A stretch of 64,000 nt of DNA from Gautieria morchelliformis (Eukaryota > Basidiomycota > Agaricomycetes > Gomphales > Gomphaceae). Under the pieces are notes generated by a model. That model was given only the letters and a program-made list of their open reading frames with translations. It was not told the origin of the DNA and did not search any database. Each line of letters begins with the position of its first letter. Position 1 is the first letter of the stretch. A program made the position numbers and the translations under genes. The stretch lies in the NCBI GenBank assembly GCA_015179125.1, contig WHVA01000385.1:48694-112693 (forward strand), written 5' to 3'. Shown piece after piece: positions 589-36,882 of this stretch.

Positions 589-1344
589 GGGAACCCCAGT
601 CGAACGATCTCTTTCAGAAACATCCAGGCTACTCCCTTGGCCGGCACGCTCGTCGTTGTCGGGACGAGGTGTATGAGTGACATTAGTCGGTCGATGACTA
701 CCATCAGGTAGTCACAGTCATTGGATTTGGGCAGGGGCCCCATGAAGTCAATGCCAATCGACTGCCATGGCCTATCCAGAATGGGTAGGCTGTGTGTAGG
801 CCTTTGGGCCGTTGTGGCCCAGTTTTCGTCATCTGGCACTTCCCGCACGATGTGCAGAATGACTCTATGTCTGGGCTCATTCCTGGCCACCAATATGACC
901 TTCGAATGTAGTTCGAAGTCTTCAGATGGCCGTAGTGACCGACTATCTGATGTGCTCGATCGATGATGATTTCAATCAGCCTCCTTCCCCCCAAATAACA
1001 GAGCGGGGGATGGCAATGACGTCTCTTTTGAGCTGGTTCTTTGTCCAGATCAGCCCGTCCCAGATCCCGAATCTCGGGTGCACGTCCGGGTGTGCCATGA
1101 TCTTCGCGAACATGGTGTCCCTATGGTATGCGTCTCGTAAGACCTTGGACAGGTCTATGCCCTGCTTGACAATCCGGCGCAGGGGCGTGCCGTCATTTCC
1201 TGCGGCGATGACTCTGACATCATCGTCGTCATCGTCGCGTGATGCGGGGATGCTCGCGGGCTTTTGTGAGCCTTCGTTTAATGTGGCGGATTCCGTTATT
1301 CTCGCCTCTGTCTTCTCTGCGAGGCGTGTAGACCATCTCGTCAC
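589..1344 (-). pseudogene. Integrase (family A copy 1), truncated
   Basis: This is the integrase portion of a Gypsy polyprotein, which would insert element cDNA into the genome. An N-terminal HHCC zinc-binding region is visible (HQIVGHYGH, then CTSCGKC), read from about 994 leftwards. The start of the catalytic core follows, with the first Asp in IGIDFMGPLP and the VIDRLM segment. The frame changes between the zinc-binding and core segments, and the core ends abruptly where unrelated repeat sequence begins. The second catalytic Asp, the Glu and the chromodomain are absent, so the product could not be active. Confidence 0.85.
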
Positions 1345-1350
1345 CGCTAC

Positions 1351-2955
1351 TCACAGTTCGATATATTGGTCGGTGGGCAATAACTCACCGTCCGGGTCTA
1401 AACGTGCGTCTGCGTTCACGAAGACATGATCCGGGTGATTGTCATCACTCGTGTTGCTCTCGTAGTAGCGTGACAGGCAGTCTGCTACCTTGCTCTCTAC
1501 ACCGTCAACATGTACGGTGTTGAAGTTGAACCGTGAGAGAAACTCCCACCATCTGACCTGGCAGTCAGATAGGCTCTTTTGGGTCTCAAAGTATTCGAGC
1601 CCTTTGTGGTCTGTGACGAGGGTGAACCTCCGTCCCAGCAGTTTGTCCTCCCATTTCATGAGAGCCTCGAGCACCGCGATTGTCTTGTGCTCGTGAGTCC
1701 GGTAGTGTTGCTGAGCAACACTGAACTTCTTTGACAAGAAGCTGGCTGGCTGACAGGTCTTCTAGTCCGGGCCTTGGCCGTAGACTGCACTGACGCCGGC
1801 TTTTTACCCGTCGGTGATCACCCAGATTGGCTCTGGGCACCGTGCGTCTATTGGACATAGGATTGGGGCCTTACAGGCCAACACCTTAATGCTTTGCCAG
1901 CATTTGTCTAGTAGTGGGGTCCATTCGAATGGACGGTTGTTGCGTGCACAACCTGATAATGGGGTCATGTATACACTAACATCTGGCATGTAATGTGCCA
2001 GATACTGTACTAGCCCAAGGAAACACTGGATGTCGTTGAACGTCTGCGGCCTTCGCCATTCATGAATGCGCTGCATCTTATCCTCGTCGGCGTGTACACC
2101 TTGGCCATCGATGATGTGGCCGAGGCACTCCATTCGGATGGAATAGAGATCAACCTTCTTCTTGCTTAGAAAAGGGTGATTCTTCCTCAGTCTGTCAAAG
2201 ACAATATAGAGGTGCTCTTCATGCTCTTGTATCGAGAGCAAGAATATGAAGATGTCGTCCATGTATACATGGACGAAGTGACCCATGCAGTTGCGGAAAA
2301 TGGCTGTCATCAGCCGTTGGAACGTTGATGGGGCATTACAGTCTTCCATTTGTATAACCTGGCTCCTAAATGTGCCAAGGATCATGGCAAAGGCGGTCTT
2401 TGCTACGTGATCTGGATGAATCCGGATCTGCTCATATGCTTCCAACATATCGAGTTTTGTTTGATACCTACAGCGATCCATGTCGCTGCGGATGATATCT
2501 TGATCCGGGAAGGGCGTGACGTCCTTCACTGTGTTCTCATTCTGCTGGCGCAGATCGAAGACGGTTCATAATGTACCATTCTTTTTCGGCACACACAGCA
2601 TGGGCATGGCCTGCTGCGCGACTGCCAGAATCCACCATTTTGCAGTGGTGTATCGTTCTATCTTAGCCGACAGTTCCTCTTGGAAGTGTTCGGGGCATTT
2701 CGGTAGTCGATACTGCATGTGCTTGTTAGGATTGATGAGATTGATCTCATGGTTGATCTCCTGTAGTGGCGGGAGTTCTAATGGAATTCCACTGACTAGG
2801 TCAGTGATTCGTTCCATCCATTCCTCGCGGAGGCGAGGAAGGTCATCATCTGTGAGGATGATGGTGGTGGTTGGCTTAGAAGCCATTAGGCGCTGTGTGC
2901 GTCTATTAGGTCCCGCGGCGCGCGGAACCGCTTTCTTCTTTCCCATCACTTTCAC
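1351..2955 (-). pseudogene. Reverse transcriptase-RNase H (family A copy 1)
   Basis: This is the central pol region of a Gypsy element. The palm contains the catalytic motif as YMDD (HVYMDDIFIF), with LGLVQYLAHY and the usual connection region downstream. RNase H follows, with VTDHKGLEYF and the terminal VADCLSRYYES. Stops interrupt it. One lies near 2566, where copy 2 has an arginine codon, and two lie near 1743-1804, one of them where copy 2 has tryptophan. TGA at a former Arg codon and TAG at a former Trp codon fit C-to-T or G-to-A decay. Without these stops the segment would read through from the protease side. Confidence 0.88.
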
Positions 2956-3033
2956 CGTTAGGTGAGAGCGCCTCTCCCTACGATTGTAGGGTGAGTTCGA
3001 GGACGAGTCGTGGAACGACTCGTCCTCCTGGCT

Positions 3034-5195
3034 TCAATGAGCCAGGCTAGGCTTCGGTGCCCAGGTGATTCTACTCACCTGTGGCCCCTTGTCCTCGTTT
3101 GTTGATCTGTCATCATCAAACAAGACCTTGCCCGTGGGGATTACTTTGTTCCCCTTGCGGATCATCCCTGGGCTCGAGAAGTCCAGGGTTATGCCAAATC
3201 TCCTTAGGAATGGTGTCCCTAAGATCGTGTCGTAATATTCGACGTTCACCACATCGAAATATTCATCGTATGTCTCATGACCAAATTTAATGGTCGTGTT
3301 CATTCCATAGTTGATTGTGGAATGGCTGCCTATGCAGGCTAGCTGCAGCGTGATTGGCTGTTCCAGGGAGAATGTCTCCATCCCTGTAGCTCGCGTGAAT
3401 TCGGGGGATAGTAGTACCCCCTCGCTGCCGCTATCTAGCAGGCAGTGGGCTTTTACGCTGTTTATTTCCCAGTACCCCAACAGGGTACAGTTCTCACCGC
3501 ATGGGCGCATTGGTCGCGTCCTATGCTTGCTTCGGTGGTGATACACTGGCTCGGCCACCTTGTCTGGCGTGACCGACGTGCGTGCCGCCATGACTTTCGT
3601 GGTGGCATCGTCTTCCAGCGCGAATCTGATCGCACTGGACCTGTAGGTGGTGTCCTCCGCCTCTTCGTCCCATTCGTAATATTGGGATGGCTTGGGATCC
3701 CACTCTTCAGCGGGCGCGTCTTCATTGTCCGGAGAGTCATTGGGTTGGGGATCACCCTCCCCCTCTTCATCAATTTGATGGAGAGAATTTTGACCGAGAT
3801 CCGTCTCCGGATCCTCGGTCTCTTCTTCGTGCCTCGTGGCCGCTGTCCTGATCCTGGACCTAAGCCAGGGGCACTCTGCTTTCTTGTGGCCAGGTTGGCC
3901 GCATTCAAAGCAGGTGGTGCTTCTTTGGTTGCCGCTGGGCTGATCGTTGGGCTGGCCCAACGCTTTCGCTGGTGGGGCAGGTCGCTGGGGCGATCCTGAC
4001 GATTGAGGCTGTTTAGCTTCAGGCGGCATCCAGCTTGTGCTGGGCATGGGGGCAGTGGCCGCTGCGTCGCTCCACTTCTTGAGAACAGGCTGGGCCTGGT
4101 CAGGCCCGTCTGTGTCAACGGCTTGCTCCCTGTAAGCCAGGCAGCGCTTGCCGTTGCCGCTGCGCTCTCTGCGTGGCGCATCCCCATGGTGTATCGGGAT
4201 GCTTCCTCTATCATTCGGGCCATCTCGAAGAGTTGCTCTATCAAGCTGCTCTCGGCGTTGTAGCCCTTTTTGAGGACTTCGTTGCGCAGCGTTTCGCGCA
4301 GTGCCGACACGAACCGTCTCCAGAACATGTAATCGTCTGGCGGCTGTATCATATGCACCACATATTTCGTGAGCTCGTTCAGCATCTCCTGAACGGTCTT
4401 CATGCCCTGCATGACCCTGTTGAATTTATTTGATGTGTGATGGTACGTCAGTGTGTGCAGGAACCTTTTTTGAAGGCCCTGCATCACTGTTTCCAGAGTC
4501 CAGCTGCGGACCTGGCGATTGAAGCGTTCTACGTTTTGAAGGAACCATTCCTGGGCTTCACCGGCTAGGTGAGTGCCCACGTAACCGACCTGCATGTCTA
4601 TGCTGGTTGGCCCTAGGAGGCAGTTCATTTTCAGCCATCTTAAGATGGCTGCGACGAAGACTTAAAACTCTTCAAGGTCAGATCCCCCGACGTAAGGCTT
4701 GGGGTGAGCCAGCTTCACGCCGGCTTTCGCTAGCACAGACTTCTCTGGTTCTGTGTCCGCAGCGTCTGCCAATGCCACGCGGATCATCCATGTGATCCCA
4801 TCATACGGCTCCAGTGGTACGATGTCAGCCTGATCCAGGATTCCCTGGCCTTCCGCTAGCAGCTCAAGGGCCCGCGTATGGCGGCGTGTGGCTGCCGCCT
4901 CTTTACGCTGCCAGTGCGCGACTTCGAGCTCTAGGCTCTCGGTTGTCATTTCAGAGTCAGGCTCTGAGGCGACCTGTTCCCTGATGATCTCTTGGATCGT
5001 CTTGCGGCTGTCCGTTGGGGCAGCCGGTTGTTCCTGAGGTTCATTCCTGAACCTCACATCCTGTTCGACTGGGACGGCTGGCGGCGGCATTCGCTGCTTG
5101 TCCAGTTCCTTTTGTCGCAGGTCTTCCACGTTGTGACCATGTTCATTAGCTGTGGACTGTCGCGAGCTTGAACATGTTGCGTCGCGTTCCCCACA
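3034..5195 (-). pseudogene. Gag and aspartic protease (family A copy 1)
   Basis: This is the main part of gag and the protease. A capsid-like helical region (about 4628-4170) is followed by a CCHC zinc knuckle, CFECGQPGHKKAEC, which would bind RNA in the particle. An acidic linker leads to a retropepsin-like domain with the active site LLDSGSEGVLLS. A stop and a frame change near 4660 separate the upstream Gln/Glu-rich part, which stays open up to the LTR insertion at about 5196. The frame on the far side of that LTR matches the gag start at 6444, so one gene was split by insertion. Confidence 0.85.
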
Positions 5196-5737
5196 TGGTA
5201 TAGAGGACAGGAATTATAGGCAGTAGGACTGGACTTGGTGCTCAAAAGAAGACTAGAAATCAATTCACTCTCTCAGTGAATTTAGTGTCACTCTAAATAT
5301 ATTATACACTAGCTAGAAATCAATTCACTACAGGATTTCTAGGTCAAAAAATCGAAAAGAAACAAGACTAATTTACTTGCCTCTCTCAGTGAATTTAGTT
5401 GTCACTGGGAGAGGGGGGAAATGTGTCTCATGCGCATGTACTACTAGCTGGCACTTTAGCGCCCGTGATGCCATGGTGTGCCATGCTAAGCGCCCATAGA
5501 ACGTAGCGCATTAGTGAACAGCTGCACCTCAAAAAGGAAACTTGTCCACAACCACCCACAAAGGGTCGGTTGGACACAACATGAAAAGAAGTAGAAATAC
5601 AGCTTCGAAAAATCAAAGAAAAATTGGACAAATCATAGAATGAATGTCAGCATGGTTTCAAGTCAAAATCAAAAGAAATACGAATGGTGGAATCTATTTG
5701 GCTTGATTTTGGTGCAGGAGCATAAATGCACCCAACA
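5196..5737 (-). repeat. Divergent copy of the 488-base hairpin LTR, inside gag
   Basis: The right end (TGTTGGGTGCATTTATGCTC read on the minus strand) matches the solo LTRs at 20891-21378 and 58059-58546. The CTCTCTCAGTGA / TCACTGGGAGAGG hairpin segment is also shared. The middle third has diverged strongly. It lies between two gag segments that are both open in a compatible frame, so it inserted into this element. I could not find a clean 5-base duplication at its borders. The left border is estimated from the length of the other copies. Confidence 0.7.
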
Positions 5738-6789: not shown

Positions 6790-8335
6790 CTAGTCATCTT
6801 CCATGGTGTTATCACCAAAGCTCACCCAGTCTTCCGCTTCCAGATCCTCTGCATTTCCATTCTGACCATACGACTTTGCAAACCTCTGCACGTCTTGCAC
6901 CTCGCCCTCAGATACTTCCGCCTCCACTTCCGAATCCCCCCTCTCTTGCGTCCACCTCAACTTCACGATGACTTGGTCGAGAAGCTCCTTGTATGCGCCC
7001 AACCGATCCGTGACTGCCAGGTAGAACTGGTGTTGCATCCGCAACCCCTGGTCCCCCTGTTGAAGCAGCCCCCGGAGCGATCTGGCGACATCCGTAAGCG
7101 GATCCGCCATCTGCTCCTCTCGCGTCATCCCTGTGGAAAGGTCTGCAGGATAGGTTGCGTATGTGTGGGGGAGTCATAAGGTCGTAGAGAGTTATGGAGA
7201 GGATAGGGATGAGAACAACTACGGTTGTTTGCGCTAACACCGCGCGCAGTGACAACGACGGACACACACCGACTCATAACACCTTCGAGTCAAGGATATC
7301 ACTGGCCTCAGTGGGCCGGAACAATAGCTCAAGATTGGAGATTGACTGCCTGGATTGTTATTGTACAGTAGCTAGCTATTTAACTACTTGGGACGAAGCT
7401 ATACTAGGATAGAAGTGGAAAGGGGTTGTGGAGCGATCAAGTGCCGCCGGTGCGTGATGCATGCACTGGCGCTGGAGCTGTGCCTATCATATGGAATTTA
7501 ATGTATGCATCAGAAATGATGGAGCGCCTTCCGCGCTCCATCGGATCTGTGCCTTGGTCAACCCCGGAACCCGGCTCAGGGTCAAAGCCACCGGGTAGAG
7601 GCACGCGCGAGTGACAACGCGCGTGCATGCCCTAGAGTGGGCCGGGATTGCATATAGGTGTAGATATGGAGTCAGAAGGTCATTAGGAGTTTGTTAGTGA
7701 TGTATAGCTCTATTTTCCTATTCATAACAGTCCCACTTCCGCTTGCCTCCGGCCCGTCGTGGACTTCCCTCGCTTTCACAGCCCTGGACAAGGGTTTCCA
7801 CGCACCCTGTACAGGCTTTTCTGAGCCCACCTCCGATCCTCCGGTTTTCCTCCGCTTGGCCATCACGCGTGCTTTGAGCCTGTCCACCAAACACACCCGT
7901 TTTGCGTCCTTGCACCGGTTACACGCTGTGGCCTTTCCGGCCAAATCCCAAACACACGGCAGGTTCTTCTCCAAGCAAGCGTCGCAGCTCTGCTGGGAAG
8001 ACCCATCCTCTTCCAGAGCCGCTCTCTTGGCCCCGGACTGGTGTGCCTCCTTCCGGCGCTGTTTCTCCTCTTGCGCCGCCCGCCATTCCGCCATCGCCTT
8101 CCCCTTGCCCTTGTTCCTTGGCCTTGGGGTTTCTTCCGGCGACGTTTCCGACGGAGACCCACTCCGCTCGGATTCCTGGTCCACGTCCGCAGCTTTTTCC
8201 TGTTCCGATGGTCAACCACATACTATCAAAGGCAAGAAACACTTGAAACACTTACCTTCTGCAACACGCGATTCTCCTCCACCTTCTCCGAGGTGGCCTT
8301 ATTCGCAGCAGCTTGGCAAGCGGCCCATCACAGAT
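6790..8335 (-). pseudogene. Zinc-cluster coiled-coil gene, broken copy 1
   Basis: This is the third member of the family described at 28751-29987. The 3' end of a first exon (8335 to about 8258, a lysine/glutamate-rich tail) is followed by a GTAAGTG donor. The main exon (8219-7672) carries the six-cysteine array with spacing C-X2-C-X6-C-X10-C-X2-C-X6-C, identical to the 29 kb copy, and a basic tail. The C-terminal coiled-coil part (7128-6790) has the conserved ADPLTDVARSLRG segment and an acidic end. About 540 bases of unrelated sequence separate the last two parts, where the 29 kb copy is continuous. The first exon is cut by the family A sequence at about 8336, and the stop lies 9 bases from an LTR. 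Confidence 0.72.
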
Positions 8336-14589: not shown

Positions 14590-15041
14590 CATATATGAGT
14601 ATATAATATATATTATAAGAGTATTAATAACAACATATAGGAACATATAGTAGTATTTATAAGGAGAATAATAGATGTTATTAGAATATTCTGTATATAT
14701 TTAAACATCTTGGAGATATATATACATATGAGAGAGTATCTGACTACAAGATAGAATAACAGATACTTGGATAGATACATCTAATAGATATGAGTAGGAG
14801 TATTAGTATGAATAGTTATAATGATATAATGTATATTAAAAGTGGGTAGAAAAAATAAGAAGAAGCATAAAAATAAGAAGAGGTGTTCTCGTCGGTGGAG
14901 CTGCTGCTCGGGGAGGGACAAAAGTAAATTTATTTATATCCCAACAATAAGATTGCCATGTGCTTTCACCCTCTTCTATTCTATAATCTGAGAATAAAAT
15001 GGGTGAATCTACATATAATAAAAAGTTGCGAGCACCCGCCA
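14590..15041. repeat. AT-rich LTR-like insertion in gag (copy E2)
   Basis: A very AT-rich stretch of about 450 bases separates two gag segments: PEPSQYY on the right, and the frame leading into MMDEDMADSQ on the left. Its right 150 bases are shared with 1-147 and end at the same CCGCCA. The left border is inferred from where gag coding resumes. I did not find a convincing duplication of target bases. Confidence 0.55.
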
Positions 15042-15702
15042 TAGTATTGGGATGGCTCAGGCTCCCAAGCCTCTGTCAGCTTGCCATTCCTATCCTGATC
15101 CTCAGTTTCCTGAGGGTCACCCTCCCCCTCTTCAATCTGTTGAAGAGAGGTGTCAATGGGATCCTCCGGGTCCCCATCATCGTCTTGCCATACGGCCGCT
15201 GTCCGTACTTTCAGCTTCAGGCGTGGGCAATTCGCCTTGATGTGACCTGTCTGGCCACATTCAAAGCATCTTGCACTGCTGTGCGCGTTCTGCAGCCGGT
15301 CTGGGGGGCATCCAGATGGCTTTTGTGGGTAGCTCGGCGAAGCCGAGCTCCCCAACGCCTCAGGTGGATGACCTGATTGCGGCAACTTTGTTGCCATAGG
15401 TCATCGGAAGGCATTGTTTGCCTGGAATGCAGTGGGCTTGTTAAAGCCCAACTGTGTAGTCGGCTTGCTTGTGGCAAGCCATGATCTGATGGCCAATGCG
15501 GCCGCAGTTTCTGCCCGGTGCATCCCTTGATTGTACCAGGATGCTTCCTTGATCATACGGGCAGCTTCAAAGAGCTGCTCGATCAAGCTGGACTCAGTGT
15601 TGTAGCCCTTTTTTAGGACTTCATTGTGCAATGTATCGCGCAATGCTGACACGAACTGTCTTTGGAGCGTGTACTCATCAGGTGGGCTGTATCATCCACG
15701 CC
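15042..15702 (-). pseudogene. Gag with zinc knuckle (family A copy 2)
   Basis: This is the capsid C-terminal and nucleocapsid part of gag. Residues matching copy 1 include RDTLHNEVLKKGYN and LIEQLFEAARMI. A CCHC knuckle, CFECGQTGHIKANC, follows, then an acidic Gln/Glu-rich linker. There is a frame change near 15400 and another near 15680. The gene is cut at 15702, where a family B LTR begins. Confidence 0.82.
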
Positions 15703-16281
15703 TGTTACGACTGTTCACTTCCGACTTCCGACCTTCAGTTCCGCTACACATTCCGCCCCTCCGATATTTCCGACACTCCGCCCTTGTTCATTTCCTTTGT
15801 TCTTTCGACTCTATTACTCGGACCCACTGGACCCACCTCACTGTTCATCAAGAGCATATGTCCGGCCCTCCTTGTGTTTCGTTGTCAGATATGTTTTCCC
15901 GACCCCTTGTTCTTTGCCATTGTTCCCAATAAGTTAGTTCCCATGCATTGTCTACTCGACTTCCGCTTCCCCGGAATTTGCTTAGTACTACCCCATTACC
16001 TGTTGTCTCATCTCTTTGTATAAAAAGCCTGTCATGTATGTCTGTTATTCTGCAATCAGATAATCACCTTCGATACTTGATTTCCTTCGCTCCATCTCCT
16101 GTTCTTAGCACAGCGAGTCTAGCAAGACCTCAGTCTCTCTGCCTCCCGTCTTCCGCCTTCCGCCTCAGTTCCGACTCAAGTCCTGACCAACCTCTAGTTC
16201 AGTACTTTCCGACTTCCAACCTATTTCCGAGATACTTAGGACGATAGTTCATTGGGGGCGCAACCTATAAGTTGAAGCCGC
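15703..16281 (+). repeat. Truncated family B LTR
   Basis: It starts TGTTACGACTG and follows the family B LTR (27936-28628 and 35223-35912, which are on the other strand) to the segment GCAACCTATAAGTTGAAGCC. The last 45 or so bases of the LTR are missing, and LINE sequence begins at once. The orientation is opposite to the two LTRs of the complete element. Confidence 0.85.
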
Positions 16282-18447
16282 ACCCGGAGGCGCACAGGAC
16301 TGGGCAAGAAAACACCAGTGCACCTTCGCGATAGACAAGTTCGGGCTCATGGGCCTAACCAGACGCCGGGAAGCAGACCCTGATAGAGCCAGGAGAACCA
16401 GACCCGTCACCAGGCCCACGATAACGATCGACCGACACGCCATCCAGCCGACACCGTCTCACAAATTCCTCGGGGTAATAGTCGACCAAGAACTTCGCTT
16501 CAAAGAGCAAGTCAATCACGCACTACAGAAGGGAAGCACATTCATAGAGCAATACCAAAGACTAGCAAAACCGTCCAGAGGAGTACCAGCTAAGCACATG
16601 TGCCAGTACTACCTAGCGGTAGCAGTCCCGAAAATTCTATATGCCGCTGATGTTTTCCTCATCCCAGCTTCGGAAGGGAAGAAAGGAACGAAGGGGCACA
16701 TCAACAAGTTAGCGAGGGTACAGAGACAGGCAGCGCTAGCGATCACCAGAGCGATGAGAACAACGGCGAGTGACACGCTCGACACTCACGCCAACATACT
16801 GCCATTCCCGCTACTCGTAGATAAGCTCATCCACAAGGCCGCCACAAGATTATCCTGCCTCCCTGACAGGCATCCCTTGTCCCCACGAGTAAACCGTGCC
16901 GCCTCGAGATACATCAGAAGACACCGCACGCAGATGCACGAGATCCTGCACGCGTACAACCTCGAGCCGAACAGAATGGAGAAGATAAACACGGTGATGA
17001 GAGGGCCCAAGTGGGCCCCAGCCTTCCAGATCCAGATACCTATGGATGAAAAGAAAGCCATAGCGGAGCTGAAGAGGGACAGGGCGCAGGTACAGGTCTA
17101 CTCGGACAGATCATGCATCGATGGAGGGGTAGGGGCGGCAGCAGTGCTATACAGGGACGGGATGGAGCAGCAGGTGGTTCGCCTCTACCTGGGCCCGGAA
17201 GAAGAACACATGGTCTGCGAAGCGGAGCTGGTGGGAGCGGCGCTGGGCGCAAAACTACTGAACAGAGAGAGGAGCGGAAGTTACATGATAGGTATGGACA
17301 ATCAAGCTGCAATACTGACCACGAGGAAAGAAAAACAGATGTCGGCTCAATACCTCCTGGACGCCCTGCACAGACAGATCGAGGGCGTCGCACAGATGCG
17401 GCCAGAAGCCACGATCCTCATGAGGTGGACGCCGGGACACAAAGGGATCAGAGGGAACGAAAGAGCGGACAAGGAGGCGAAAGAGGTGGCGAGAGGCAAT
17501 AGCAGCGAGGAGCAGTTCATCCCAATAGAGTGCAGAGGGCCCTTGCCAATAAGCAGATCGGCAGAGATACAAAGACATCAGAAGGAACACAGGCGCAGGG
17601 CCAGAGCTGTATTTGCCAGATCTCTGAGGTCGGCACTCGCACACGAGATCGACAGGACGATGCCATCCGCGACCTTCGCGAAGCTGATGGAGGGGCTAGC
17701 ACGCAGACAAGCGGCGCTGCTGATCCAACTTAGAACAGGACACGTGCCCCTGAACAAACACATCTACAGAATCGGAAAGGCGGACTCACCAACGTGCGCA
17801 AAATGCAGGAGAGCCGACGAGATGGTACACCACTACCTATTCAGGTGCCCGGCCTACAGCGGCCCACGAAAAGAACTCGAGAGGACCCTGAAGCGGGAAG
17901 CGAAGGCGGTAAACACTCTACTAGCCAAACCGAAAGTGATGAGACCATTGTTCAAGTACATACAGGACACGAAACACTTCGAAGGAATATATGGGAGCAT
18001 GGGCACAAGGGGCGAGGGGGGCCAGGACAGAGGCAACACAAGGCTGACCAGAGGCAGCCGATAAGGCAGAGGCATGGATGAGCGGAAAAAGAGGACGAGA
18101 GAAGCAGGAAAGGACAAGGGGGAAAGGGGACAGAGACGAGGGAGAAGAGACACAGAGCAAGGAGACACAACACGACGAGGCAGGGAAATGGAGGAGCGGA
18201 CTAGCGGCGAAGAGAAGGAGCAGAAGAAGAGAGAAAGAACGAAACGGAAAACACGCAGCGCACAGAGTGCAAATCCCACCCTGCCAACGCAGGCACGGAC
18301 AAGCCCAGGGCTTAGCCCAAGGAGCATTAGCGGAGATAGAGAAGGACGGGCTAGATAGAACAAATGTCGACAAGGGCTAATGTACAAGCGTCTTACCTAG
18401 GGCCCGCCCCAAAAGACGAAAAATTGGATTTAAAAAAAAAAAAAAAA
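16282..18447 (+). mobile_element. 5'-truncated LINE (non-LTR retrotransposon)
   Basis: The unit has the C-terminal part of a LINE ORF2, a 3' untranslated region and a 16-base poly(A) tail (18432-18447). The 5' part, including the endonuclease and RT catalytic core, is missing. It abuts a truncated LTR at 16281 with no visible target duplication. The 3' end (ACCTAGGGC, CCCCAAAAGAC, AATTGGAT before poly-A) is related to the short reversed LINE tail at 37357-37455. Confidence 0.88.
16349..18064 (+). CDS. LINE ORF2 C-terminal fragment with RNase H
   Basis: An open frame of 571 codons, uninterrupted but lacking its N-terminus. Residues 1-220 match the region downstream of the RT palm in LINE proteins (KFLGVIVDQELRFKEQV, then VQRQAALAITRAMRTT). 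Residues about 247-380 form an RNase H domain with the acidic residues in YSDRSCIDGG, CEAELVGA and GMDNQAA, plus the WTPGHKGIRGNERAD motif. A C-terminal Cys/His cluster lies near residue 485 (CAKCRRADEMVHHYLFRC). This layout fits the Tad1/I-type LINEs of fungi. The listed ATG is not the native start. Confidence 0.88.
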   Translation: MGLTRRREADPDRARRTRPVTRPTITIDRHAIQPTPSHKFLGVIVDQELRFKEQVNHALQKGSTFIEQYQRLAKPSRGVPAKHMCQYYLAVAVPKILYAADVFLIPASEGKKGTKGHINKLARVQRQAALAITRAMRTTASDTLDTHANILPFPLLVDKLIHKAATRLSCLPDRHPLSPRVNRAASRYIRRHRTQMHEILHAYNLEPNRMEKINTVMRGPKWAPAFQIQIPMDEKKAIAELKRDRAQVQVYSDRSCIDGGVGAAAVLYRDGMEQQVVRLYLGPEEEHMVCEAELVGAALGAKLLNRERSGSYMIGMDNQAAILTTRKEKQMSAQYLLDALHRQIEGVAQMRPEATILMRWTPGHKGIRGNERADKEAKEVARGNSSEEQFIPIECRGPLPISRSAEIQRHQKEHRRRARAVFARSLRSALAHEIDRTMPSATFAKLMEGLARRQAALLIQLRTGHVPLNKHIYRIGKADSPTCAKCRRADEMVHHYLFRCPAYSGPRKELERTLKREAKAVNTLLAKPKVMRPLFKYIQDTKHFEGIYGSMGTRGEGGQDRGNTRLTRGSR

Positions 18448-27793: not shown

Positions 27794-27935
27794 CTCACTG
27801 TCGCTCCAGCATAAGCGGCACAGGTTACCGAGACATTTGTACACTACAATACGTAGTGTAGTTCCATCGAGTTCCATTCCGAGCGCACCGCTACCCCCTG
27901 TCCAAAACCACTGAAGTGCTTTTACTAGATCCATG

Positions 27936-28628
27936 TGTTACGTATCGAGATTTCCACTAAGTCGGAACTGGAAAGGACAGCGGCTTCAACTTATAGGTTG
28001 CGCCCCCAATGAACTATCGTCCTAGGTATTTCGGAAATGAGCCGGAAGTCGGAAAGTACTGCCCCAGAGGTTTGGTCGGAACTTGAGTCGGAGATGAGGC
28101 GGAAGGCGGAAGACGGAAGGCTGAGAGAGAGACGGAGGTCTTACTAGACTCGCTGTGCTAAGAACAGGAGATGGAGCGAAGGAAATCAAGTATCGAAGGT
28201 GATTATCTGATTGCAGAATTACAGATATACATGAGGGGGGTTTTATACAAAGCGCAGAGCAACAGGTAATGGTGTTGTACTAAGCAAATTCCGGAGGAAG
28301 CGGAAGTCGAGTACAATGTGTGGGAACTAACTAATTGGGAACAATGGGACTACAAGGGGGGTTCAGGGTAAGGTAGAACAATGGCAAAGAACAAGGGGTC
28401 GGGAAAACATATCTGACAACGAACTACAAGGGTGACCGGATATGTGGTTTTGATGAATGGCGAGGTAGATCCGGTGGGTCCGAGTAATAGAGTCGAAAGA
28501 ACAAGGGAAATGTACAAGGGGCGAAATGGCGGAAATGTCGGAGGGGCGGAACGTGTGGCGGAACTATTGGAGAGGTGGAATGTATGGCGGAACTGAGGGT
28601 CGGAAGTCGGAAATGAACGGTCGTAACA
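27936..28628 (-). repeat. 3' LTR of family B element
   Basis: 693 bases. On the plus strand it begins TGTTACGTATC and ends GGTCGTAACA. It is nearly the same as 35223-35912 apart from scattered substitutions and short indels. Just inside it (28629 onwards) lies the pyrimidine-rich plus strand ATCTCCCTTC, that is, a purine-rich minus strand as expected for a polypurine tract. I count about 14 CGGAA pentamers on the plus strand; chance would give fewer than one. Confidence 0.92.
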
Positions 28629-28750
28629 GTATCTCCCTTCTAAGGTCGAGCCCCGCGAGACCACAAGTCGGAATCACGTGACCTGTGAACAAATGCGTCG
28701 GAGTTTGAAAGATAGGCGGGAAGCAAGACGCGTCTTCTGTTTAGTCCATC

Positions 28751-29987
28751 ATGAGCACTCCAGTCGACTTCTCCAAAATGACCAGTGCTGAGATGAAAGA
28801 ACACTTTGCTGACATGCTCGCGCAAAAGGAGTTGGCCGAAAAGCGCGAGGCCGAGGAAGCGGCGCGGAAGGAGAAAGAGCGTCTGGAGGAGGAGCGCAAA
28901 GAGAAAGAGCGCAAGGAACAGGAGCGTCTGGAACGGGAGCGGAAAGAGAAGGAGGAGCGTGACCGCAAACGTCGCGAGGAGGAATCGCGCGTCCGTGAAG
29001 AACAGCGGAAACGGGATGCGGCCAAAAAGGCTGCGGGAAACAAGGCCGTGGCGGAGAAAACGGAACAATCCCGGGTGAGTCGGAAAGGTTCTGAGTCTCA
29101 TCCCGAGACTGACTAAAGAAACTTGGCAGAAAATAATCGTCGAATCCGATTCCGAACCGGAGTCGGAAGACACGGCGGAAAACACACCGTCTCCTGAAGG
29201 GAAGGGAAAACAACAGGAAGTAGTTCCTGTTGTGAACCTTGTGGCGGATCGGAAAAGGAGGGCGGACGAATTTCAACAGGCCAGGAAGAACAAGATGGCC
29301 CGCATTGTCGACCTCCGGGAGTTGGGGCCAGAGAATCCCGCGACCCGGAAACGGAAGACAAGGGACGGGGAAGAAGAAAAGGCGCCCTGCGACACATGCG
29401 AGATGAAGGGGCTTGAGTGTATTTGGTCGGAAAATCCGCGGGAAACCGCTTGCGATCGGTGCCGTGACAAGAAGAGGCGGTGCGTCGTGGACGGTTGTTC
29501 CGCGAGGGTGGAGCGGAAGAGGCGGAAAGTCGAGACCGAGGGGCCAGAAACCCCAAAGTCAAAACCAAGGTCGAGCGGGAAAAAGGGCGCGGAAGGCTTT
29601 CCGGTGACCGGGCAGTCGGAAACAGCGGTGTTAAACCGCTTCACCATGACGTCGCCCCTACTCGATATCGCCGAGTCCTTGAGGGGGATCCGGAAAACGC
29701 AGCGCGGGATCCGGAACATTTTGCTGGAAATGGCAGAGGTTCAACAACACCAAGTGTTGTCATTCCAAAATCAGATGACTGTAATGTCAACAGTTTTGGA
29801 GCAGCTGAAGCGGGAGTTCCGGTGGCGGAACGATTTGTTCCGGGACCAACTGGGGTTGCGAGAGGAGCAGGAGAATGAGGCGGGAACGAGGGTGGAGACA
29901 GAGCTGGTGAGTGTGCCGATGGGGCATGCGGAAGAGGGTGCGGAAGCGGAGAACGAGGAAGAGGCGGAAATGATGAGGGAGGAGTGA
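28751..29987 (+). CDS. Zn2Cys6-like coiled-coil protein, antisense to gag-pol
   Basis: Two exons with an intron near 29071-29130. Exon 1 encodes a long charged coiled coil rich in Glu, Lys and Arg (about residues 15-100). Exon 2 (frame open over 29232-29987) starts with an acidic Ser/Glu segment and a basic stretch. It then carries six cysteines spaced C-X2-C-X6-C-X10-C-X2-C-X6-C (29391-29490), with the Arg/Lys-rich loop in the second half (CDRCRDKKRRC), then basic KRRK segments, a helical SPLLDIAESLRGI region and an acidic tail. The spacing fits the fungal binuclear zinc cluster, which binds DNA, often at CGG triplets. The canonical basic loop lies in the first half, so this is a variant. 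The gene is convergent with pol, and its start lies 122 bases inside the 3' LTR, which could serve as its promoter. Regulatory, silencing-evasion or replication roles are all conjecture. Confidence 0.8.
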
Positions 29988-30116
29988 AGTCGAGATGACT
30001 TTGTAAATACTTCTTGGAGCATCGGAAATTAGTGTAGCGGAATAGTAATTCGGATTTGAATAATAACTTGAAACTTGTAAGAAAGCAATAGGAATCGGAA
30101 AAGAGGTCGGAATTGA

Positions 30117-31990
30117 CTAGGGCGCGGAAATGGGGCCAGGCTTGTTAGGATATGACTTGTGGAAATCAGAGACGAGGTCAGAGGCGTGGTCTAGTTCCGT
30201 GGCGGAAATCCACGAAGTTTCTTCGTCAGTGTTTTCATAGCCTGCCCACTTGACTAGGTACTGGAGTTGGCAGCGGTATCTTCTGTCGAGCTTGGAGTTG
30301 AGAATTTCCGAAATCTCATATTCCGGTTCTCCGTCGATGACGACTGGCGGAGGCGGAGGCTGTTCTCGATTCGGAATTGTATTCGGAACTGCGGGTTCAA
30401 GCATGGAGACATGGAATACCGGATGTACTGCGCGCATATTGTCAGGAAGTCTGAGGGTGAAAGAACGACTGCCGGCCTTAGCGATGATCTCGTAAGGACC
30501 GAGGTATTTCTCAGAGAGCTTCTTCGAGGGGCGAGTGGTGCGGAAGTTTTCAGCTTTGACAAAGACTTTGTCGCCTATCTCGAATGCCGGTTGCGGAAGG
30601 CGTTTCCGATCGGCGGAAGTTTGGTATCTCTTCTGGGCAGCTGTAATGTTCTCTCGGAGGTGCTGGTGAAGGTCGTCAAGTTCCACAACGAAATCTCGGG
30701 CTCTTGCAGAGGCGAGGTCGCGTTCAGGGTGGATGGCGAGATTCGGGTGGTAGCCCTTGTTGGCGTAAAAGGGTGAAATTCCGGTGGTAGCGGAAGGCGC
30801 ATTGTTGTAGGCAAATTCCGCGAGCGGAAGAAGGTCGGACCAATTGCTGTGTTGGTAGTTGCAATAGACGCGGAGATACTGCTCAAGGGTCTGATTAGTA
30901 CGTTCCGTCTGTCCGTCTCCTTCGGGGTGATAACCGGAAGTGAAGTGGAGCTTCATGTCGAGAGCCTTGCCGAGTGTGCGGAAAAAGGAGGACACAAATT
31001 CGGATCCACGGTCGGAAGTGACATGGGAAGGTATTCCGTGCTTGGAAAAGACGTGGAGCACAAAGAGCTGTGCGAGCTGGGCGGAAGTTATGGTGTCGTA
31101 GGTTGGAATAAAGATGGACTGCTTTGTGAGGCGGTCAACGATCACTAGAATGGTATCATAGCCGGATGACTTAGGAAGTTTCTCAATGAAATCCATGGAT
31201 ATTGAATTCCACGGTTGTTCCGGGATCGGAAGTTGCTTCAGGAGTCCGTAGGGTTTGTGACGTTGAGGCTTGGCTCGCATACAGGTGGTGCATGACTTGC
31301 AGTAGTCTTGGACCATCGTGCGGAGGAGAGGCCAAGTATAGGTACGTCGGATTATGTCGAGGGTCTTGTTCTGGCCTTGGTGTCCTGAGAGCGGATGATC
31401 GTGGCTTTGCTGGAGCACGCGAAGTCGTAGATCGTTGGTGTCCGGAACGTAAATCCGGGACTTGTACCGGAGGGATCCGTCAGAATCGAGGGACCATCCA
31501 GGACTGGTGCGGTCATCGAGGTGGGCTGCGGAGGTGGGGTCGGAACGGAGTGCGGAACGGATGTCGGAATGGAGAGACTCGGTGTCCATAATAATTGAGG
31601 CGCGGAGTAGCGGAAACTGCAATGCTGTGGCACGCAGGGACGATGCCAGTTGCTCAGTGGAGAATACTGGGCGGAAATTGTGCGGATTAACGCTGGCATA
31701 GTCGCTACTTCCCTCTTTTGGGTAGACGTCCCAACGTCTAGTGAGCGCGTCGGGTTTTGCTCCGAGCTTTCCGGGGCGGAAACGGATCACCATGTTGAAC
31801 TGTGAGAGGTATTCAGACCAGCGGACTTGACGGCGAGTCAAAATCTTAGTGGTTGCAAAATACTCAAGGTTCTTATGATCCGTTACAACGTCGATGGGAT
31901 AAGTTGGACCTTCGAGGTAATGTCTCCAGATTTTGAAGGCTTCGAAAATCGCAAGTAGTTCCTTATCGTGGACGTCGTAGTTTAGTTCCG
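30117..31990 (-). CDS. RNase H end, integrase and chromodomain (family B)
   Basis: An open frame of at least 574 codons. It starts inside RNase H (the region after LEYFATTKI) and runs through the HHCC zinc region (HDHPLSGHQG then CKSCTTCMRA). The catalytic core follows, with Asp in SMDFIEKLP, Asp in HVTSDRGSEF and the PEGDGQTERTNQTLEQ helix that carries the Glu. A C-terminal GPYEII and VFHVSMLEP segment comes before the chromodomain (YEISEILNSKLDR, LQYLVKWAGYENTDEETSW). All three catalytic acids are visible, so this part could be functional. It belongs in one polyprotein with RT; a frameshift near 32055 separates them. The stop lies at the purine-rich antisense gene border. Confidence 0.92.
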
Positions 31991-33400
31991 GGGCGGAAAA
32001 GGTGCGGGAATGAAAGGCGATCGGATGAATTTCTCCGTCGTCGGGTGAAATGATGGAAGAATGGCGGCTAGCGCGTAGTCAGAAGCGTCGGTTTCGAGTA
32101 CAAGTTGGGCATCAGGAATCCAGAAACCGAGTATGGGAGCCGTGGTGAAGGCCGATTTGAGGGCTTCAAATGCGGAACGGCATTCCGGTGTGAAATTCCA
32201 TGGGGCACCCTTCCTGGTGAGACGCGTGAGCGGAACAGTAATGTCGGAAAAATTATAAATGAAACGCCGGTAAAAGTTGGCGAAGCCAAGGAAAGACTGC
32301 ACATCCTTAACACGTCGGGGTTCCGGCCATTCTTGAATTGCCTTGACCTTGTCCTCTGCCATGGTAAGACCTGTTGGAGAGAGGATGTAGCCGAGGTATT
32401 CGACCGTGTCGCGATGCCATTCGCATTTCTCTGCTTTTGCGTAGAGATGGTGTTTGCGTAGGCGGCGGAGTACTTCGCGGACATGTCCCCGATGTTTTTC
32501 CGGTGTGTCGGAATAGATGAGGATGTCGTCAATGTAGACTAGAACGCATACGTCGAGGAGGTCGGAAAATACGTCGTTCATGAATCGCTGAAAAGCGGCG
32601 GGAGCGTTGGTTAGACCAAAAGGCATGACAACCCACTCAAAAGCGCCGTAGCGGGTGCGGAAGGTGGTTTTCCACTCGTCACCTTCCCGGATGCGGACAA
32701 GGTGATAAGCGTGCCGTAGGTCAATTTTGGTGTAGATCTTCGCCCTGCGGGGAGTGTCGAGTAAATCGGAAATGCGCGGAAGCGGATATTTGTCCTTTTT
32801 AGTGAGGGCATTGAGTCCGCGGAAATCGACGCAGAGGCGGAGAGATCCATCCTTCTTCTTGACGAAGAGGACCGGAGCGCCGTGCGGAGACAGCGAAGGG
32901 CGGATAAAGCCCATGTTGAGATGTTCATCGACGAACTCTCGGAGAGTTAGGAGTTCACTTTGCGAAAGAGAGTAGATCGGTCCAAGGGGCGGAGATGCTC
33001 CTTCTTCCAAATCTATCTTCAAGTCGTAAGGTCGATGTTCAGCAGGTTTGTCGGCTTTGGCCTTATTGAACACGTCCGGGAAGTCACGATATTCGTCCGG
33101 AACTGAGCTCATGTCGACCGGAGCGGAAGTCGAGGCGGAACGAGCCTTGACTGAAGCCGAATCGGAGAGGTGAAGCTGGGAAGACGGTCGTATCATCTTG
33201 CCGTTGCAATACGCGGAAAGCGGTGGCGGAAACGAGCGCAATTCGAGGAGCTTCGAGGGGCGGAGGTGCTAAAGCGGGACCGGAGTGCGGAACTGAATCC
33301 ACGAGCGGAGTTGCGGAAGAGGCCTGAGCCATCTTTGCAGAAGACGTCGGAATAGACGGAAGTTGATCCGGGGTACGGAACTGTATTTGGCCCAATGCCC
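31982..33400 (-). pseudogene. Reverse transcriptase and RNase H start (family B)
   Basis: The RT fingers and palm are complete: VLFVKKKDGSLRLCVDFRGL, then VYIDDILIYSD with the catalytic YIDD, then LGFANFYRRFI and the RNase H entry VLETDASDYALAAIL. The frame is then lost by a single-base change near 32055. The other frame continues with DDGEIHPIAFHSRTF and leads into the integrase frame. Upstream, at about 33680-33600, a protease active site is visible in a third frame (ALVDSGSTHCFLD). The fragmentation suggests at least two single-base indels in this copy. Confidence 0.88.
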
Positions 33401-33786
33401 AGTTAATCGACGGATTATATCGGGTGAGCCAATTGTGTCCTAGTACAACGGAACAGCTAGCATCTAGCGGAGTAACGTAAAACGTAACTTCATGGTTGTC
33501 CCAGTAGCGAAACGGATAGACAGATCCACAACTTGGGAAATTCCCGTGTTGGAAGACCCGTCGAAAAGGCGGAGCGGAATAGTCGGATGTTGCGGGTCGG
33601 AAGTTTATGTTTCAAAACAAAGTCGGAATCGAGGAAACAATGAGTCGAACCGGAGTCGACCAGTGCTGTAAACGGGGGTGCGGAAATGGTGTCGGAAGTG
33701 AGCGGAACAGAGAGAGAGTCGGAGGACGAAAGAGCGGATGCGTTGAGTTAACCTCGTTTGTCGCACGAATGGGGTCAACACAGCCC

Positions 33787-35189
33787 TCAGCTCGTGCGGA
33801 GGCCGGAGGACTGCTGACTATTTTTTTGAATCCGCAGCGGGAACCGCTTCGGATTTCTCTTCCGTCTTTGCTGCGCGGCCTTTGGCTTAGCAGCGGAGGC
33901 GGAAGCGCGAGTGCAGTCGCGAGCGACGTGACCTCCTTTGCCGCAGAAGAGGCAAAGGTTGTTGTCCATGCGACGCTGGCGTTCTACAGGGGTTAGTTTT
34001 CCGTCTTTCCCAAGTTTGTCGGAAGATCCGGGGTGCTCTTCCGGGCTTGGTGTTAGAACCAGAGGCCTGGTTGTTCCGAGGGGTGTTGTTGTTGTTCCGG
34101 TTGCCGGAGTTGGATCCGGAACTGTTGTTGTTGTTGTTTCCGGAGTTGGTGTTTCCGGAATTGGTCTTCTTCTTGTCTTTATCAGACTTCTTGTCGAAGA
34201 CTTGTCGTTCTTGCTCTGGGCGGAGGTTTCACGAGCAATCTCGGAGTGTCTTTCCCAGTAGCGCGAATCGATGGATTGGGCGAGGTTGCGGAGGTCGGTA
34301 AGGGTGGCGGGTTTTCCGACGCGGGGCAATTTCATCCTTGATGCGGGATGGCAAGCCCATGTAAACTGGCGTCGGAGTGCGGCTTCTCCCCATTGGACTC
34401 GAGGAGCGAGCTGCTGAAACGTGACGATATATTTAGCTATCTTATGAGTGTCTTTCATGCGAAGCTTATCGAGTTCGTTTCCGCATCGGCTTCCATATCA
34501 AATGGTCCGAAGTTGCTGCGGAGTTCGGAAATGAAATTGGGGTAATCGTCGGCCCAGTCGACGAGAGCGAACGGATCCATGAGGGCGGGTTCGAAATAGT
34601 CGAGCGCCGTTCCTCGGAGATAGGAAAGGGCATAATTGACCTTTCGTTCGTCGTCGGGAAAGGCGTCGGGACGATCACGGAAATTGAGTTGAAGCTGAAC
34701 CAGAAATGGCTGGAGCTTCTTGGGTCGGAACGTCGAACTGATCTGGTTCGCGGACCTTTGTCTTGGGGCGTGGTGGTGCTTGGGCCGGCGCAGCTGGAGT
34801 TGTCCGGCTAGCATGGCGATGGCTTGTGCAAGATCGGAACTGGTGCGGGCGGAACTGGGTTGGCCGGAATCTGAGGTGGAATTGGAGGTGGAGGACCGCC
34901 ATGAGGGCGCCTGGAGGTGGTCCTGGTGGAGGTGGTGGTGGTGGAGCTGGGCGTCGGAATGACGCTGCTGTTTGTTCGCCGCTGCTACTCGTTGAATTCC
35001 CGTCGTAGTCGGGATTAGCGTCGGGAACTTCTTCGAATCGTTGCGGAAAAGCATCGGAAGCTCATCGTCGGCACGAGAGCTGCTGGAGGGTTCCGCGTGC
35101 CTTGGTGCTGCGGATCTAAGACTGCCAAAATAAGAGAGAGCTTCGACAGCTCCTGCTCGAGCTGAAGTAGCTGTGGTACGAGGAGGCAT
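33787..35189 (-). pseudogene. Gag (family B), one frameshift
   Basis: An ATG at 35189, just inside the 5' LTR, starts a Ser/Ala/Gln-rich N-terminus. It is followed by a capsid-type region (LPFLVQLQL-like, KVNYALSYLRGTALDYFEP). The frame shifts near 34460. The other frame continues with MKDTHKIAKYIVTFQQLA, a Thr/Pro-rich linker and a CCHC knuckle, CLFCGKGGHVARDC (about 33960-33920). Both halves together give a normal Gypsy gag of roughly 460 residues. A programmed shift is possible but unusual inside capsid; an indel is more likely. Confidence 0.85.
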
Positions 35190-35222
35190 AGTGATAGTTA
35201 TCGGGTGGGAATCAGATAATAC

Positions 35223-35912
35223 TGTTACGTATCGAGATTTCCACTAAGTCGGAACTGGAAAGGACAGCGGCTTCAACTTATAGGTTGCGCCCCCAATGAA
35301 CTATCGTCCTAGGTATTTCGGAAATGAGCCGGAAGTCGGAAAGTACTGGACCAGAGGTTTGGTCGGAACTTGAGTCGGAACTGAGGCGGAAAGCGGAAAC
35401 GGAAGGCTGAGAGAGAGACTGAGATCTTGCTAGACTCGCTGTGCTAAGAACAGGAGATGGAGCGAAGGAAATCAAGTATCGAAGGTGATTATCTGATTGC
35501 AGAATAACAGACATACATGAGGGGGTTTTATACAAAGCGCAGAGCAACAAGTAATGGTGTTGTACTAAGCAAATTCCGGAGGAAGCGGAAGTCGAGTACA
35601 ATGTGTGGGAACTAACTAATTGGGAACAATGGGACTACAAGGGGGGTTCAGGGTAAGGTAGAACAATGGCAAAGAACAAGGGGTCGGGAAACATATCTGA
35701 CAACAAACTACAAGGGTGACCGGATATATGGTTTTGATGGATGGCGAGGTGGGTCCGGTGGGTCCGAGTAATAGCGTCGAAAGAACAAGGGAAATGTACA
35801 AGGGGCGGAATGTCGGAAATGTCGGAGGGGCGGAACGTGTGGCGGAACTATTGGAGAGGCGGAATGTATGGCGGAACTGAGGGTCGGAAGTCGGAAATGA
35901 ACGGTCGTAACA
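35223..35912 (-). repeat. 5' LTR of family B element
   Basis: 690 bases with TG...CA ends. It differs from the 3' LTR by scattered changes and small indels, so the insertion is not very recent. CGGAA is about as frequent as in the 3' LTR. Confidence 0.92.
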
Positions 35913-36882
35913 GAGAGAAATAATCCGCAAGTTTAAGTGGGAGCTTAGCCAGGAGCTCAAAATCAAAGATCTAGGCGACCTACATTGGATGCTAGGCATC
36001 GAAGTCGCAAGGGACAGGAAGGCTCGAACGATATCATTTTCGCAGCACGCGTATATCACAAAGATACTTGAAAGATTCGGACTACAAGATGCAAAGGGCC
36101 TGTCGACCCCACTCGATCCGCATCACAAGTTGAGCCTAGCTCAATGCCCTGTAACGCCGCGCCACTACGAAGCCGTCCAGGGAGCCCCATACCGCGAAGC
36201 CATCGGATCCCTAATGTACGCAGCTCTAGGGACGAGGCCGGACATCATGTTTGCCGTCACGTTTCTGTCGCAGTTCATGCAGAATCCGGGACGGCCTCAT
36301 TGGGAAGAGGTGAAGCGAGTTTTTCGTTACCTGAAAGGAACGATCGACCAGAAGCTGGTGATCGGTGTCAGGAATCGGTGGACATGGGCGAAACCAGGAA
36401 AACAAGAATGCACCGGACTCGAAGGGTTTTCGGATGCCGATGGAGCCTCACAGCACCATCGATACTCGATATCCGGCTACGTGTTCACCATAGACGGAGG
36501 TGCCGTTTCCTGGAGCTCGAAGAAGCAGTCAGTTGTCACGTTATCCACAACGGAAGCAGAATACATAGCTGCCACTCACGCAACGAAAGAAAGCCTGTGG
36601 ATTCGCATGTTCATCGCTGAAATCGCCCGTCCTCTCACACAGCCCGTCACCATGTACTGCGATAACCAGTCAGCGATATCAGTCTCGAAAAACGATCAGT
36701 TCAAGGCACGCACCAAACATATCGACGTATGATACCATTTCATACGCGATGTGGTCAAACGCGGCCTGATCTCCATCGACTACTGCCCTACCGCTGACAT
36801 GCCGGCGGACATGCTCACGAAGGCCCTGCCGGCTCCACAGCTCGCTCGCCTTCGAATGTCCATTGGAGTGCGTTCAGCTTAA
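35913..36882 (+). pseudogene. Copia-type RT C-terminus and RNase H
   Basis: This is the 3' part of a Ty1/Copia polyprotein. It starts in the RT connection (IKDLGDLHWMLGIEVARD) and includes GSLMYAALGTRPDIMFAV and the RNase H motifs GFSDADGAS, STTEAEYIAA and YCDNQSAI. The end, ADMPADMLTKALP, is diagnostic for Copia. One in-frame TGA near 36730 replaces a probable Arg codon (HIDV-stop-YHF), a C-to-T type change. The 5' part is cut off by the family B LTR. Confidence 0.93.

What the first reader, a model, noticed from the sequence alone, without database searches (positions are those of the whole stretch)
28629..30116. Zn2Cys6-spaced gene carried antisense between pol and the 3' LTR of a chromovirus
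Seen: a two-exon plus-strand gene inside a minus-strand Gypsy element, between the pol stop and the LTR. It has six cysteines spaced C-X2-C-X6-C-X10-C-X2-C-X6-C, flanking coiled coils and basic runs. Known: this spacing fits the fungal binuclear zinc cluster; plant LTR elements with extra antisense genes in this position have been reported. Inference: the element encodes its own DNA-binding regulator or chromatin factor, transcribed from the 3' LTR side.
Basis: partly seen in the sequence, partly recalled or inferred. Interest (0 to 1): 0.88.

Follow-up and report, generated by a model that had tools for sequence, protein, structure and literature searches.

The report
Swappable antisense zinc-cluster gene in retrotransposon
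A fungal jumping element carries, backwards between its polymerase gene and its end repeat, a real gene for a zinc-cluster protein, and otherwise near-identical copies of the element carry very different old versions of just this gene, as if it were an exchangeable module.

Summary
A two-exon plus-strand gene (28751-29074, 29130-29987; 393 aa) lies antisense between the pol stop and the 3' LTR of a minus-strand chromovirus. It is a genuine gene: three exon-2 searches list 220 places in the host genome, dN/dS is 0.11-0.29, and six cysteines are kept in 48-49 of 49 copies. The zinc cluster is odd: its halves are in swapped order and it stays below Pfam's PF00172 cut-off.

The larger finding lies beyond the lead. 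The gene unit (about 28,695-30,100) is a hypervariable cassette. Elements whose LTR and pol differ by 1-3% carry cassettes whose second exon differs by 23-31%, in one case beyond DNA alignment. The diversity is largely synonymous, intronic and untranslated. The whole element is also packed with CGGAA (120 against 7.3 expected), beyond codon usage; but a second chromovirus family without the gene has the motif too, so the motif's reader is unproven.

Best explanation: a DNA-binding regulator in an exchangeable module whose diversity is maintained, perhaps by escape from small-RNA silencing. Transcription, zinc and DNA binding are untested.

The parts
27936..35913 (-). LTR retrotransposon (Ty3/Gypsy chromovirus), element of the finding; also the extent of the CGGAA array (CGGAA 120, TTCCG 31 on the + strand)
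   Evidence: LTR pair; domains; motif count
27936..28629 (-). 3' LTR; 15 CGGAA on the + strand, 1 TTCCG
28630..28690 (.). most conserved non-coding block of those compared (mean pairwise difference 2.2% over 630 pairs); on the polypurine-tract side of the LTR; holds CACGTG at 28675-28680 in 43 of 47 copies; possible promoter of the antisense gene (inference)
28691..30102 (+). hypervariable cassette = antisense gene unit; the edges lie within about 25 bases of the same places in the 7 pairs checked
28751..29074 (+). exon 1, 108 codons, highly charged coiled-coil-like region
29075..29129 (+). 55-nt intron, GTGAGT...TTGGCAG; donor kept in 48 of 49 copies
29130..29987 (+). exon 2, 285 codons plus stop
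29388..29483 (+). half-swapped Zn2Cys6-type cluster (Cys at exon-2 residues 87, 90, 97, 108, 111, 118); seventh conserved Cys at residue 123
29652..29909 (+). long C-terminal helix (exon-2 residues 175-260, mostly pLDDT about 80-96 by block), candidate dimerisation coiled coil
   Evidence: single-sequence model, mean pLDDT 63
29988..30116 (.). spacer between the two stop codons; the most variable part of the cassette (mean difference 26.7%, 630 pairs)
30117..31841 (-). integrase with C-terminal chromodomain
31982..33241 (-). reverse transcriptase / RNase H ORF (another frame than the integrase ORF in this copy)
33787..35189 (-). gag region: two ORFs, one with a CCHC knuckle (weak matches, below Pfam cut-offs)
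35223..35913 (-). 5' LTR, 2.9% different from the 3' LTR

Best explanation
The element carries its own antisense regulator gene in an exchangeable module. SHOWN by sequence: a two-exon gene under purifying selection; a six-cysteine cluster whose halves stand in swapped order relative to the Pfam model; old, deeply diverged versions of the whole gene unit sitting in young, near-identical bodies with shared edges; a CGGAA array over the whole element that exceeds what protein and codon usage explain. INFERRED: the protein dimerises through its C-terminal helix and binds DNA through the basic half of the zinc cluster, plausibly CGG-type sites in the LTR and body, and thereby controls expression or chromatin of the element. 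INFERRED: the versions are kept apart by diversity-maintaining (rare-type advantage) selection acting mainly on nucleotides. The unit is the only part where genomic RNA and an antisense mRNA would overlap; double-stranded RNA from it would make small RNAs against that version only, so an element with a different version escapes while the protein stays functional. Template switching during reverse transcription moves versions between bodies.
Against: No transcript, small RNA, zinc or DNA-binding data. The second chromovirus family (L044), which has no room for the gene, is as rich in the motif (56+38 against 6.8 each), so the motif may be read by a host factor or serve another end. The zinc cluster is among the most conserved parts, so the versions probably do not differ in DNA specificity. 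Synonymous divergence in pol is not nil (mean pS 0.151 against 0.375 in exon 2 over 630 pairs). Body data do not significantly reject classes W or V as clades (p-AU 0.17, 0.27), and the young-body group was named after seeing the tree. One 5-copy sample of Foldseek and PDB sequence evidence is empty: no solved structure is a relative. Of 10 damaged or unlisted copies read, most have frame breaks or deletions.
Confidence: 0.45

Rival explanations
1. Heteroimmunity / copy-number control: the antisense protein represses elements of its own version in trans, like the repressor module of lambdoid phages, so elements with a rare version multiply.
For: Same anatomy as an immunity region: one divergent regulator module in a homogeneous body, with several versions among young copies. 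Protein does diverge (29-85% identity between classes), including the C-terminal helix that could set dimer partners.
Against: The zinc cluster, which should carry operator specificity, is the most conserved part (pN/pS 0.10-0.15) and no region shows an excess of amino-acid changes; the LTR and body are shared, so version-specific operators could lie only inside the cassette.
Confidence: 0.2
2. Neutral mosaicism: many old lineages once existed; a recent master body swept through by recombination and picked up whatever old cassettes were present. No selection for diversity.
For: Recombination is evident also inside the cassette (L015 has window-type exons with an L041-like spacer; L035/L040 a window-type first half with another second half). 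Body tree and cassette tree disagree.
Against: A sweep should carry a linked cassette along; instead at least five classes (W, V, X, Z, Q) sit in bodies 1-3% apart, with the same edges. No divergent bodies matching the divergent cassettes were seen among the 36 copies compared (all bodies within one 8% cluster, exon 2 in 12).
Confidence: 0.25
3. Motif-based anti-silencing or activation: the protein binds the CGGAA array that covers LTR and body, keeping the element open, like VANC proteins and their motif arrays in Arabidopsis VANDAL transposons; the cassette's diversity is a separate matter.
For: 120 CGGAA in 7978 bp against 7.3 expected, with sharp edges at the LTR ends; CGG is the half-site of Zn2Cys6 proteins (recalled); motif number is kept in cassettes of 34-77% protein identity to the window's; motif positions are shared between L011 and L041 exon 2 in 10 of 16 against 24-31% for other 5-mers. 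PMC5735166 (passages read) describes dense, same-orientation motif arrays as the VANC21 target.
Against: The L044 family has the array without the gene; in the decayed copy L042 the sharing drops to 4 of 16 with L011. No binding data. A genome-wide scan for motif clusters never ran (tool busy).
Confidence: 0.35
4. Gag-like or structural nucleic-acid-binding helper rather than a regulator: a basic coiled-coil protein that packages or protects element nucleic acid.
For: Long basic and coiled-coil stretches; weak Pfam score.
Against: Antisense orientation and an intron in antisense sense are unusual for a structural protein; cluster spacing is strictly kept.
Confidence: 0.1

Closest known systems
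Retand LTR retrotransposons of plants (antisense TRP28 ORF between pol and 3' LTR; PMC11963269, abstract and Discussion read)
   Same: Gypsy element; antisense ORF in the pol-3'LTR space as a family feature; predicted DNA binding; function unknown
   Different: Retand is a non-chromovirus lineage of plants; TRP28 is another domain; no exchangeable hypervariable cassette or half-swapped zinc cluster is mentioned in what I read
HTLV-type antisense genes (named in PMC11963269 Discussion; HBZ recalled)
   Same: antisense regulator gene at the 3' end of an LTR element
   Different: bZIP protein (recalled), not a zinc cluster; retrovirus of primates; no relation claimed
VANC / VANDAL anti-silencing system of Arabidopsis (PMC5735166, passages read)
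   Same: element-encoded protein and a dense, mostly same-orientation short-motif array in the element
   Different: DNA transposon; motif mainly in non-coding tandem repeats there, over coding sequence too here; binding shown there, not here; a second family without the gene shares the motif here
Fungal Zn2Cys6 transcription factors (Pfam PF00172)
   Same: six cysteines with compatible spacing, adjacent basic residues, coiled-coil-like helix
   Different: halves in swapped order; Pfam cut-off not reached
Lambdoid phage immunity regions (recalled)
   Same: one divergent regulator module in an otherwise shared genome
   Different: no evidence of version-specific operators; diversity here is mainly synonymous

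Membership tests
Zn2Cys6 binuclear cluster (PF00172) | six Cys with C-X2-C-X6-C-Xn-C-X2-C-X6-8-C spacing (pattern recalled) | tested here: met
   spacing X2,X6,X10,X2,X6; kept in 49 of 49 copies except one Cys in one copy; same spacing in class Q
Zn2Cys6 binuclear cluster (PF00172) | score over Pfam's gathering cut-off (21 bits) | tested here: not met
   16.8 whole protein; 14.1-17.8 for exon 2 of four alleles; 16.6-19.5 for four isolated native clusters
Zn2Cys6 binuclear cluster (PF00172) | order of halves: basic half first | tested here: not met
   native first half matches profile positions 7-35, 15-37 or 16-32, and the second half positions 1-13; exchanging halves raises the score in 4 of 4 alleles (19.2 to 24.0, 18.5 to 21.2, 19.5 to 24.5, 16.6 to 20.7; three of four then pass 21) and lowers it in 2 of 2 host clusters (35.9 to 27.8, 32.5 to 22.4)
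Zn2Cys6 binuclear cluster (PF00172) | binds two Zn(II) and CGG-type DNA | not testable with these tools
   needs purified protein
Ty3/Gypsy chromovirus | LTR pair, RT, integrase with C-terminal chromodomain | tested here: met
Retand | TRP28 domain; non-chromovirus lineage | tested here: not met
   this element has a chromodomain, so it is not of that lineage; TRP28 itself was not searched as a model
VANC-like motif-reading system | motif array specific to elements that encode the protein | tested here: not met
   L044 family has the array without the gene
VANC-like motif-reading system | protein binds the motif | not testable with these tools
   no binding data
Phage-type immunity module | divergent regulator module in a shared body | tested here: met
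Phage-type immunity module | version-specific DNA recognition | tested here: inconclusive
   zinc cluster is among the most conserved regions, no functional test

The most novel reading that the evidence does not exclude
A eukaryotic retrotransposon family maintains an old, balanced pool of alternative antisense regulator modules. Small RNAs from the only bidirectionally transcribed segment silence one version at a time, so rare versions spread; template switching plugs old modules into young bodies, while a half-swapped zinc-cluster protein reads CGGAA arrays that the element, and a second chromovirus that parasitises the protein in trans, have accumulated in their own coding sequence.
Probability: 0.2. 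Interest if true: 0.93.

Novelty: new variant of a known kind. Interest (0 to 1): 0.78.

Why it matters
Antisense accessory genes in LTR elements are known but their role is open. Here the gene unit, and only it, is old and diverse in otherwise young elements, a strong and directly testable hint that something (small-RNA silencing, copy-number control or another rare-type advantage) selects on it. The synonymous character of the diversity predicts a specific result in small-RNA sequencing. The half-swapped zinc cluster is an unusual arrangement of a well-known DNA-binding domain, and the CGGAA enrichment inside coding regions of two distantly related chromovirus families points to DNA-level selection in a fungal genome that carries RNAi genes and loses CpG in old copies.

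Tried and rejected
Elevated local mutation rate: set aside, because within a class the cassette is no more diverged than the body. Chance ORF or reverse-strand shadow of pol: rejected, since pol ends at 30117 and the gene at 29987, and the frame is under purifying selection. CGGAA as a by-product of codon or amino-acid use: rejected by synonymous-codon shuffles for the integrase, RT and gag TTCCG, L044 pol, and the exon-2 alleles W, X, Z, Q; not for RT and gag CGGAA, which are near their shuffle means (4 against 2.3; 2 against 1.3), and weaker for the decayed L042 (17 of 500). Gene as the sole reason for the motif: rejected by L044. Preferred motif spacing (12 bp) was seen (9 and 7 pairs in two copies) but not pursued. 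Relatives elsewhere: one protein-database search of residues 140-380 found none at E<=0.001 among 1473 candidates, viral contigs none, NCBIfam none, PDB by sequence only four matches at E about 1, Foldseek one meaningless match. A second protein-database query was not sent.

Rows dropped: 9 of 45 copies (L022, L023, L029, L031, L032, L043, L050, L053, L058) for truncated or non-homologous flanks before the 630-pair counts. The 4 copies, 8 and 4 were not in those counts.

Full report
WHAT IS THERE. The minus-strand element spans 27936-35913 with LTRs 27936-28629 and 35223-35913. Its ORFs match gag-type knuckles (below cut-off), RT (138 bits), integrase and a C-terminal chromodomain (31.8 bits), i.e. 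a Ty3/Gypsy chromovirus. Between the pol stop (30117) and the 3' LTR lies a plus-strand gene: ATG 28751, donor after 29074, acceptor before 29130, stop at 29987, 393 aa.

IS IT A GENE. Exon 2 searched in the host genome (122 Mb, 1113 contigs) gave 136 scored matches of 721 candidates, 70-100% identity, 111 of 136 without an in-frame stop. Two further searches with other versions bring the number of distinct places to 220; the lists are capped, so this is a lower bound. A fourth search, with version Q, gave 149 rows, many of them fragments. NG86 dN/dS was 0.11-0.29 in 36 pairs of 9 copies; window against L041 dN 0.150, dS 1.343. In 49 copies the donor GTGAGT is kept in 48, and each of seven Cys in 49, except one Cys lost in one copy. 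The gene is a regular part of the family: I gave 100 of the 150 integrase C-terminus matches to a script; 56 have an exon-2 match or 57 beside them, 22 more one. Of the remaining 22 I read 10; all keep cassette DNA, most with frame breaks or deletions, and one (L072) carries an intact gene of a new version.

THE ZINC CLUSTER. Spacing is C-X2-C-X6-C-X10-C-X2-C-X6-C. PF00172 scores 14-20 bits, below 21, and matches piecewise: the protein's first half to the profile's second half, its second half to profile positions 1-13. The basic residues lie in the second half (CRDKKRRC), whereas in host proteins such as L004 they lie in the first (CRKSKCKC). Exchanging the halves in silico raised the score in 4 of 4 versions and lowered it in 2 of 2 host controls; one of the four stayed just under the cut-off (20.7). 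So the cluster is a half-swapped relative of Zn2Cys6; zinc binding is inferred. A single-sequence AlphaFold2 model has low confidence overall (63) with a confident long helix at residues 175-260; Foldseek and PDB sequence searches found no relative.

THE CASSETTE. Window against L041, per 250 bp, is 95-100% identical over LTR, pol and gag but 73-86% from about 28,685 to 30,185. Edges lie near 28,683-28,705 and 30,100 in the 7 pairs examined, that is between the polypurine side of the LTR and the pol stop. L012 against L041: LTR 1.3%, pol 1.6%, promoter side 10%, exon 1 15.5%, intron 35%, exon 2 23%, spacer 28%. Four more L041-class copies agree. Class Z (L068): LTR 0.9-1.3% from L012, L040 and L041, exon 2 26-31%, dS 0.95-1.46, dN/dS 0.15-0.23. 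Class Q (L072): LTR 2.3%, pol 2.4% from L012, exon 2 not alignable as DNA, 34% protein identity to the window's, same cysteine spacing. L041's own LTRs are identical, so that copy is young. Among 36 of 45 copies (9 dropped) mean difference over 630 pairs is LTR 6.8%, pol 5.3%, exon 1 12.9%, exon 2 16.1%, intron 22.6%, spacer 26.7%; transversions are denser in the cassette in 602 of 630 pairs; of 131 pairs with bodies under 3% apart, 69 have cassettes over 10% apart; at 8% the bodies form one cluster and exon 2 twelve. Within a class the cassette is no more diverged than the body, so versions are old and have been moved between bodies rather than mutating fast. Trees agree in part: cassette data reject the young-body group (lnL 283 lower, p-AU 0.0001; group named after the tree was seen), body data split classes W and V without significance (p-AU 0.17 and 0.27). 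Synonymous divergence in pol's C-terminus averages 0.151 against 0.375 in exon 2, so the contrast there is two- to ten-fold, less than raw DNA figures suggest.

WHAT SELECTS. pN/pS is below 0.5 in every 20-codon bin and lowest near the zinc cluster: the protein is conserved while synonymous sites, intron and untranslated parts diverge. That fits selection on nucleotides. The cassette is where the genomic RNA and an antisense mRNA would overlap. Between L012 and L041 no 21-mer is shared in the cassette (0 of 1406) against 1007 of 1339 in body segments; other class pairs share 0.9-30% of cassette 21-mers. The zero itself is not beyond what 23% divergence allows (my estimate, no call). The host has Piwi, RdRP and cytosine-methylase matches, and older copies have lost up to 31% of CpG to TG/CA. 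Escape from small-RNA silencing is my preferred but untested reading; heteroimmunity and neutral mosaicism are the rivals.

THE MOTIF. CGGAA occurs 120 times on the + strand of the element against 7.3 expected from the rest of the window (19.3 by a first-order model), TTCCG 31 times. Density is 18.9 per kb on both strands together, against 1.1-1.6 in most other stretches of the window, 5.7 in a LINE region and 6.0 at 60,001-62,000. It exceeds synonymous-codon shuffles in integrase, RT (TTCCG) and exon 2, also in versions X, Z and Q. Against a simple protein-motif pair stands L044, a distant chromovirus (RT 45% identity) whose pol runs into its 3' LTR, leaving no room for the gene, yet with 56 CGGAA and 38 TTCCG against 6.8 each. 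L045, a fragment with another chromodomain, is not enriched. Either the protein acts on both families in trans, or a host factor reads the motif.

VERDICT. Observation confirmed; interpretation partly supported; the exchangeable hypervariable cassette, the half-swapped cluster and the motif array are additions.

Noticed in passing
L044 (G000:C295), sense 1-5606 of the reverse strand: Second, highly repeated chromovirus family (its chromodomain dominates the 150 rows) with pol running into the 3' LTR and the same CGGAA/TTCCG enrichment, but no antisense gene.
   Followed up: partly
window 6793-7140 and 7714-8199, minus strand: Pieces of a class-Q relative of the antisense gene (82% and 71% identity) lie elsewhere in the same window.
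   Followed up: no
window 31841-31982: RT and integrase ORFs are in different frames in this copy and in L041, whereas many listed copies show a single open frame of about 1257 aa there. Described only.
   Followed up: no
window 27931-27935 and 35913-35917: No target-site duplication is seen (CCATG against GAGAG) and the two LTRs differ by 2.9%, so this copy may be an inter-element recombinant.
   Followed up: no
L021-L058 older copies: Loss of CpG to TG/CA of up to 31% in older copies, suggesting methylation and deamination.
   Followed up: partly
window 28675-28680: CACGTG palindrome inside the most conserved non-coding block, kept in 43 of 47 copies.
   Followed up: partly
window 15001-18000: LINE-like region with a milder CGGAA excess (5.7 per kb, against about 5.2 sites expected and 17 seen).
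   Followed up: no
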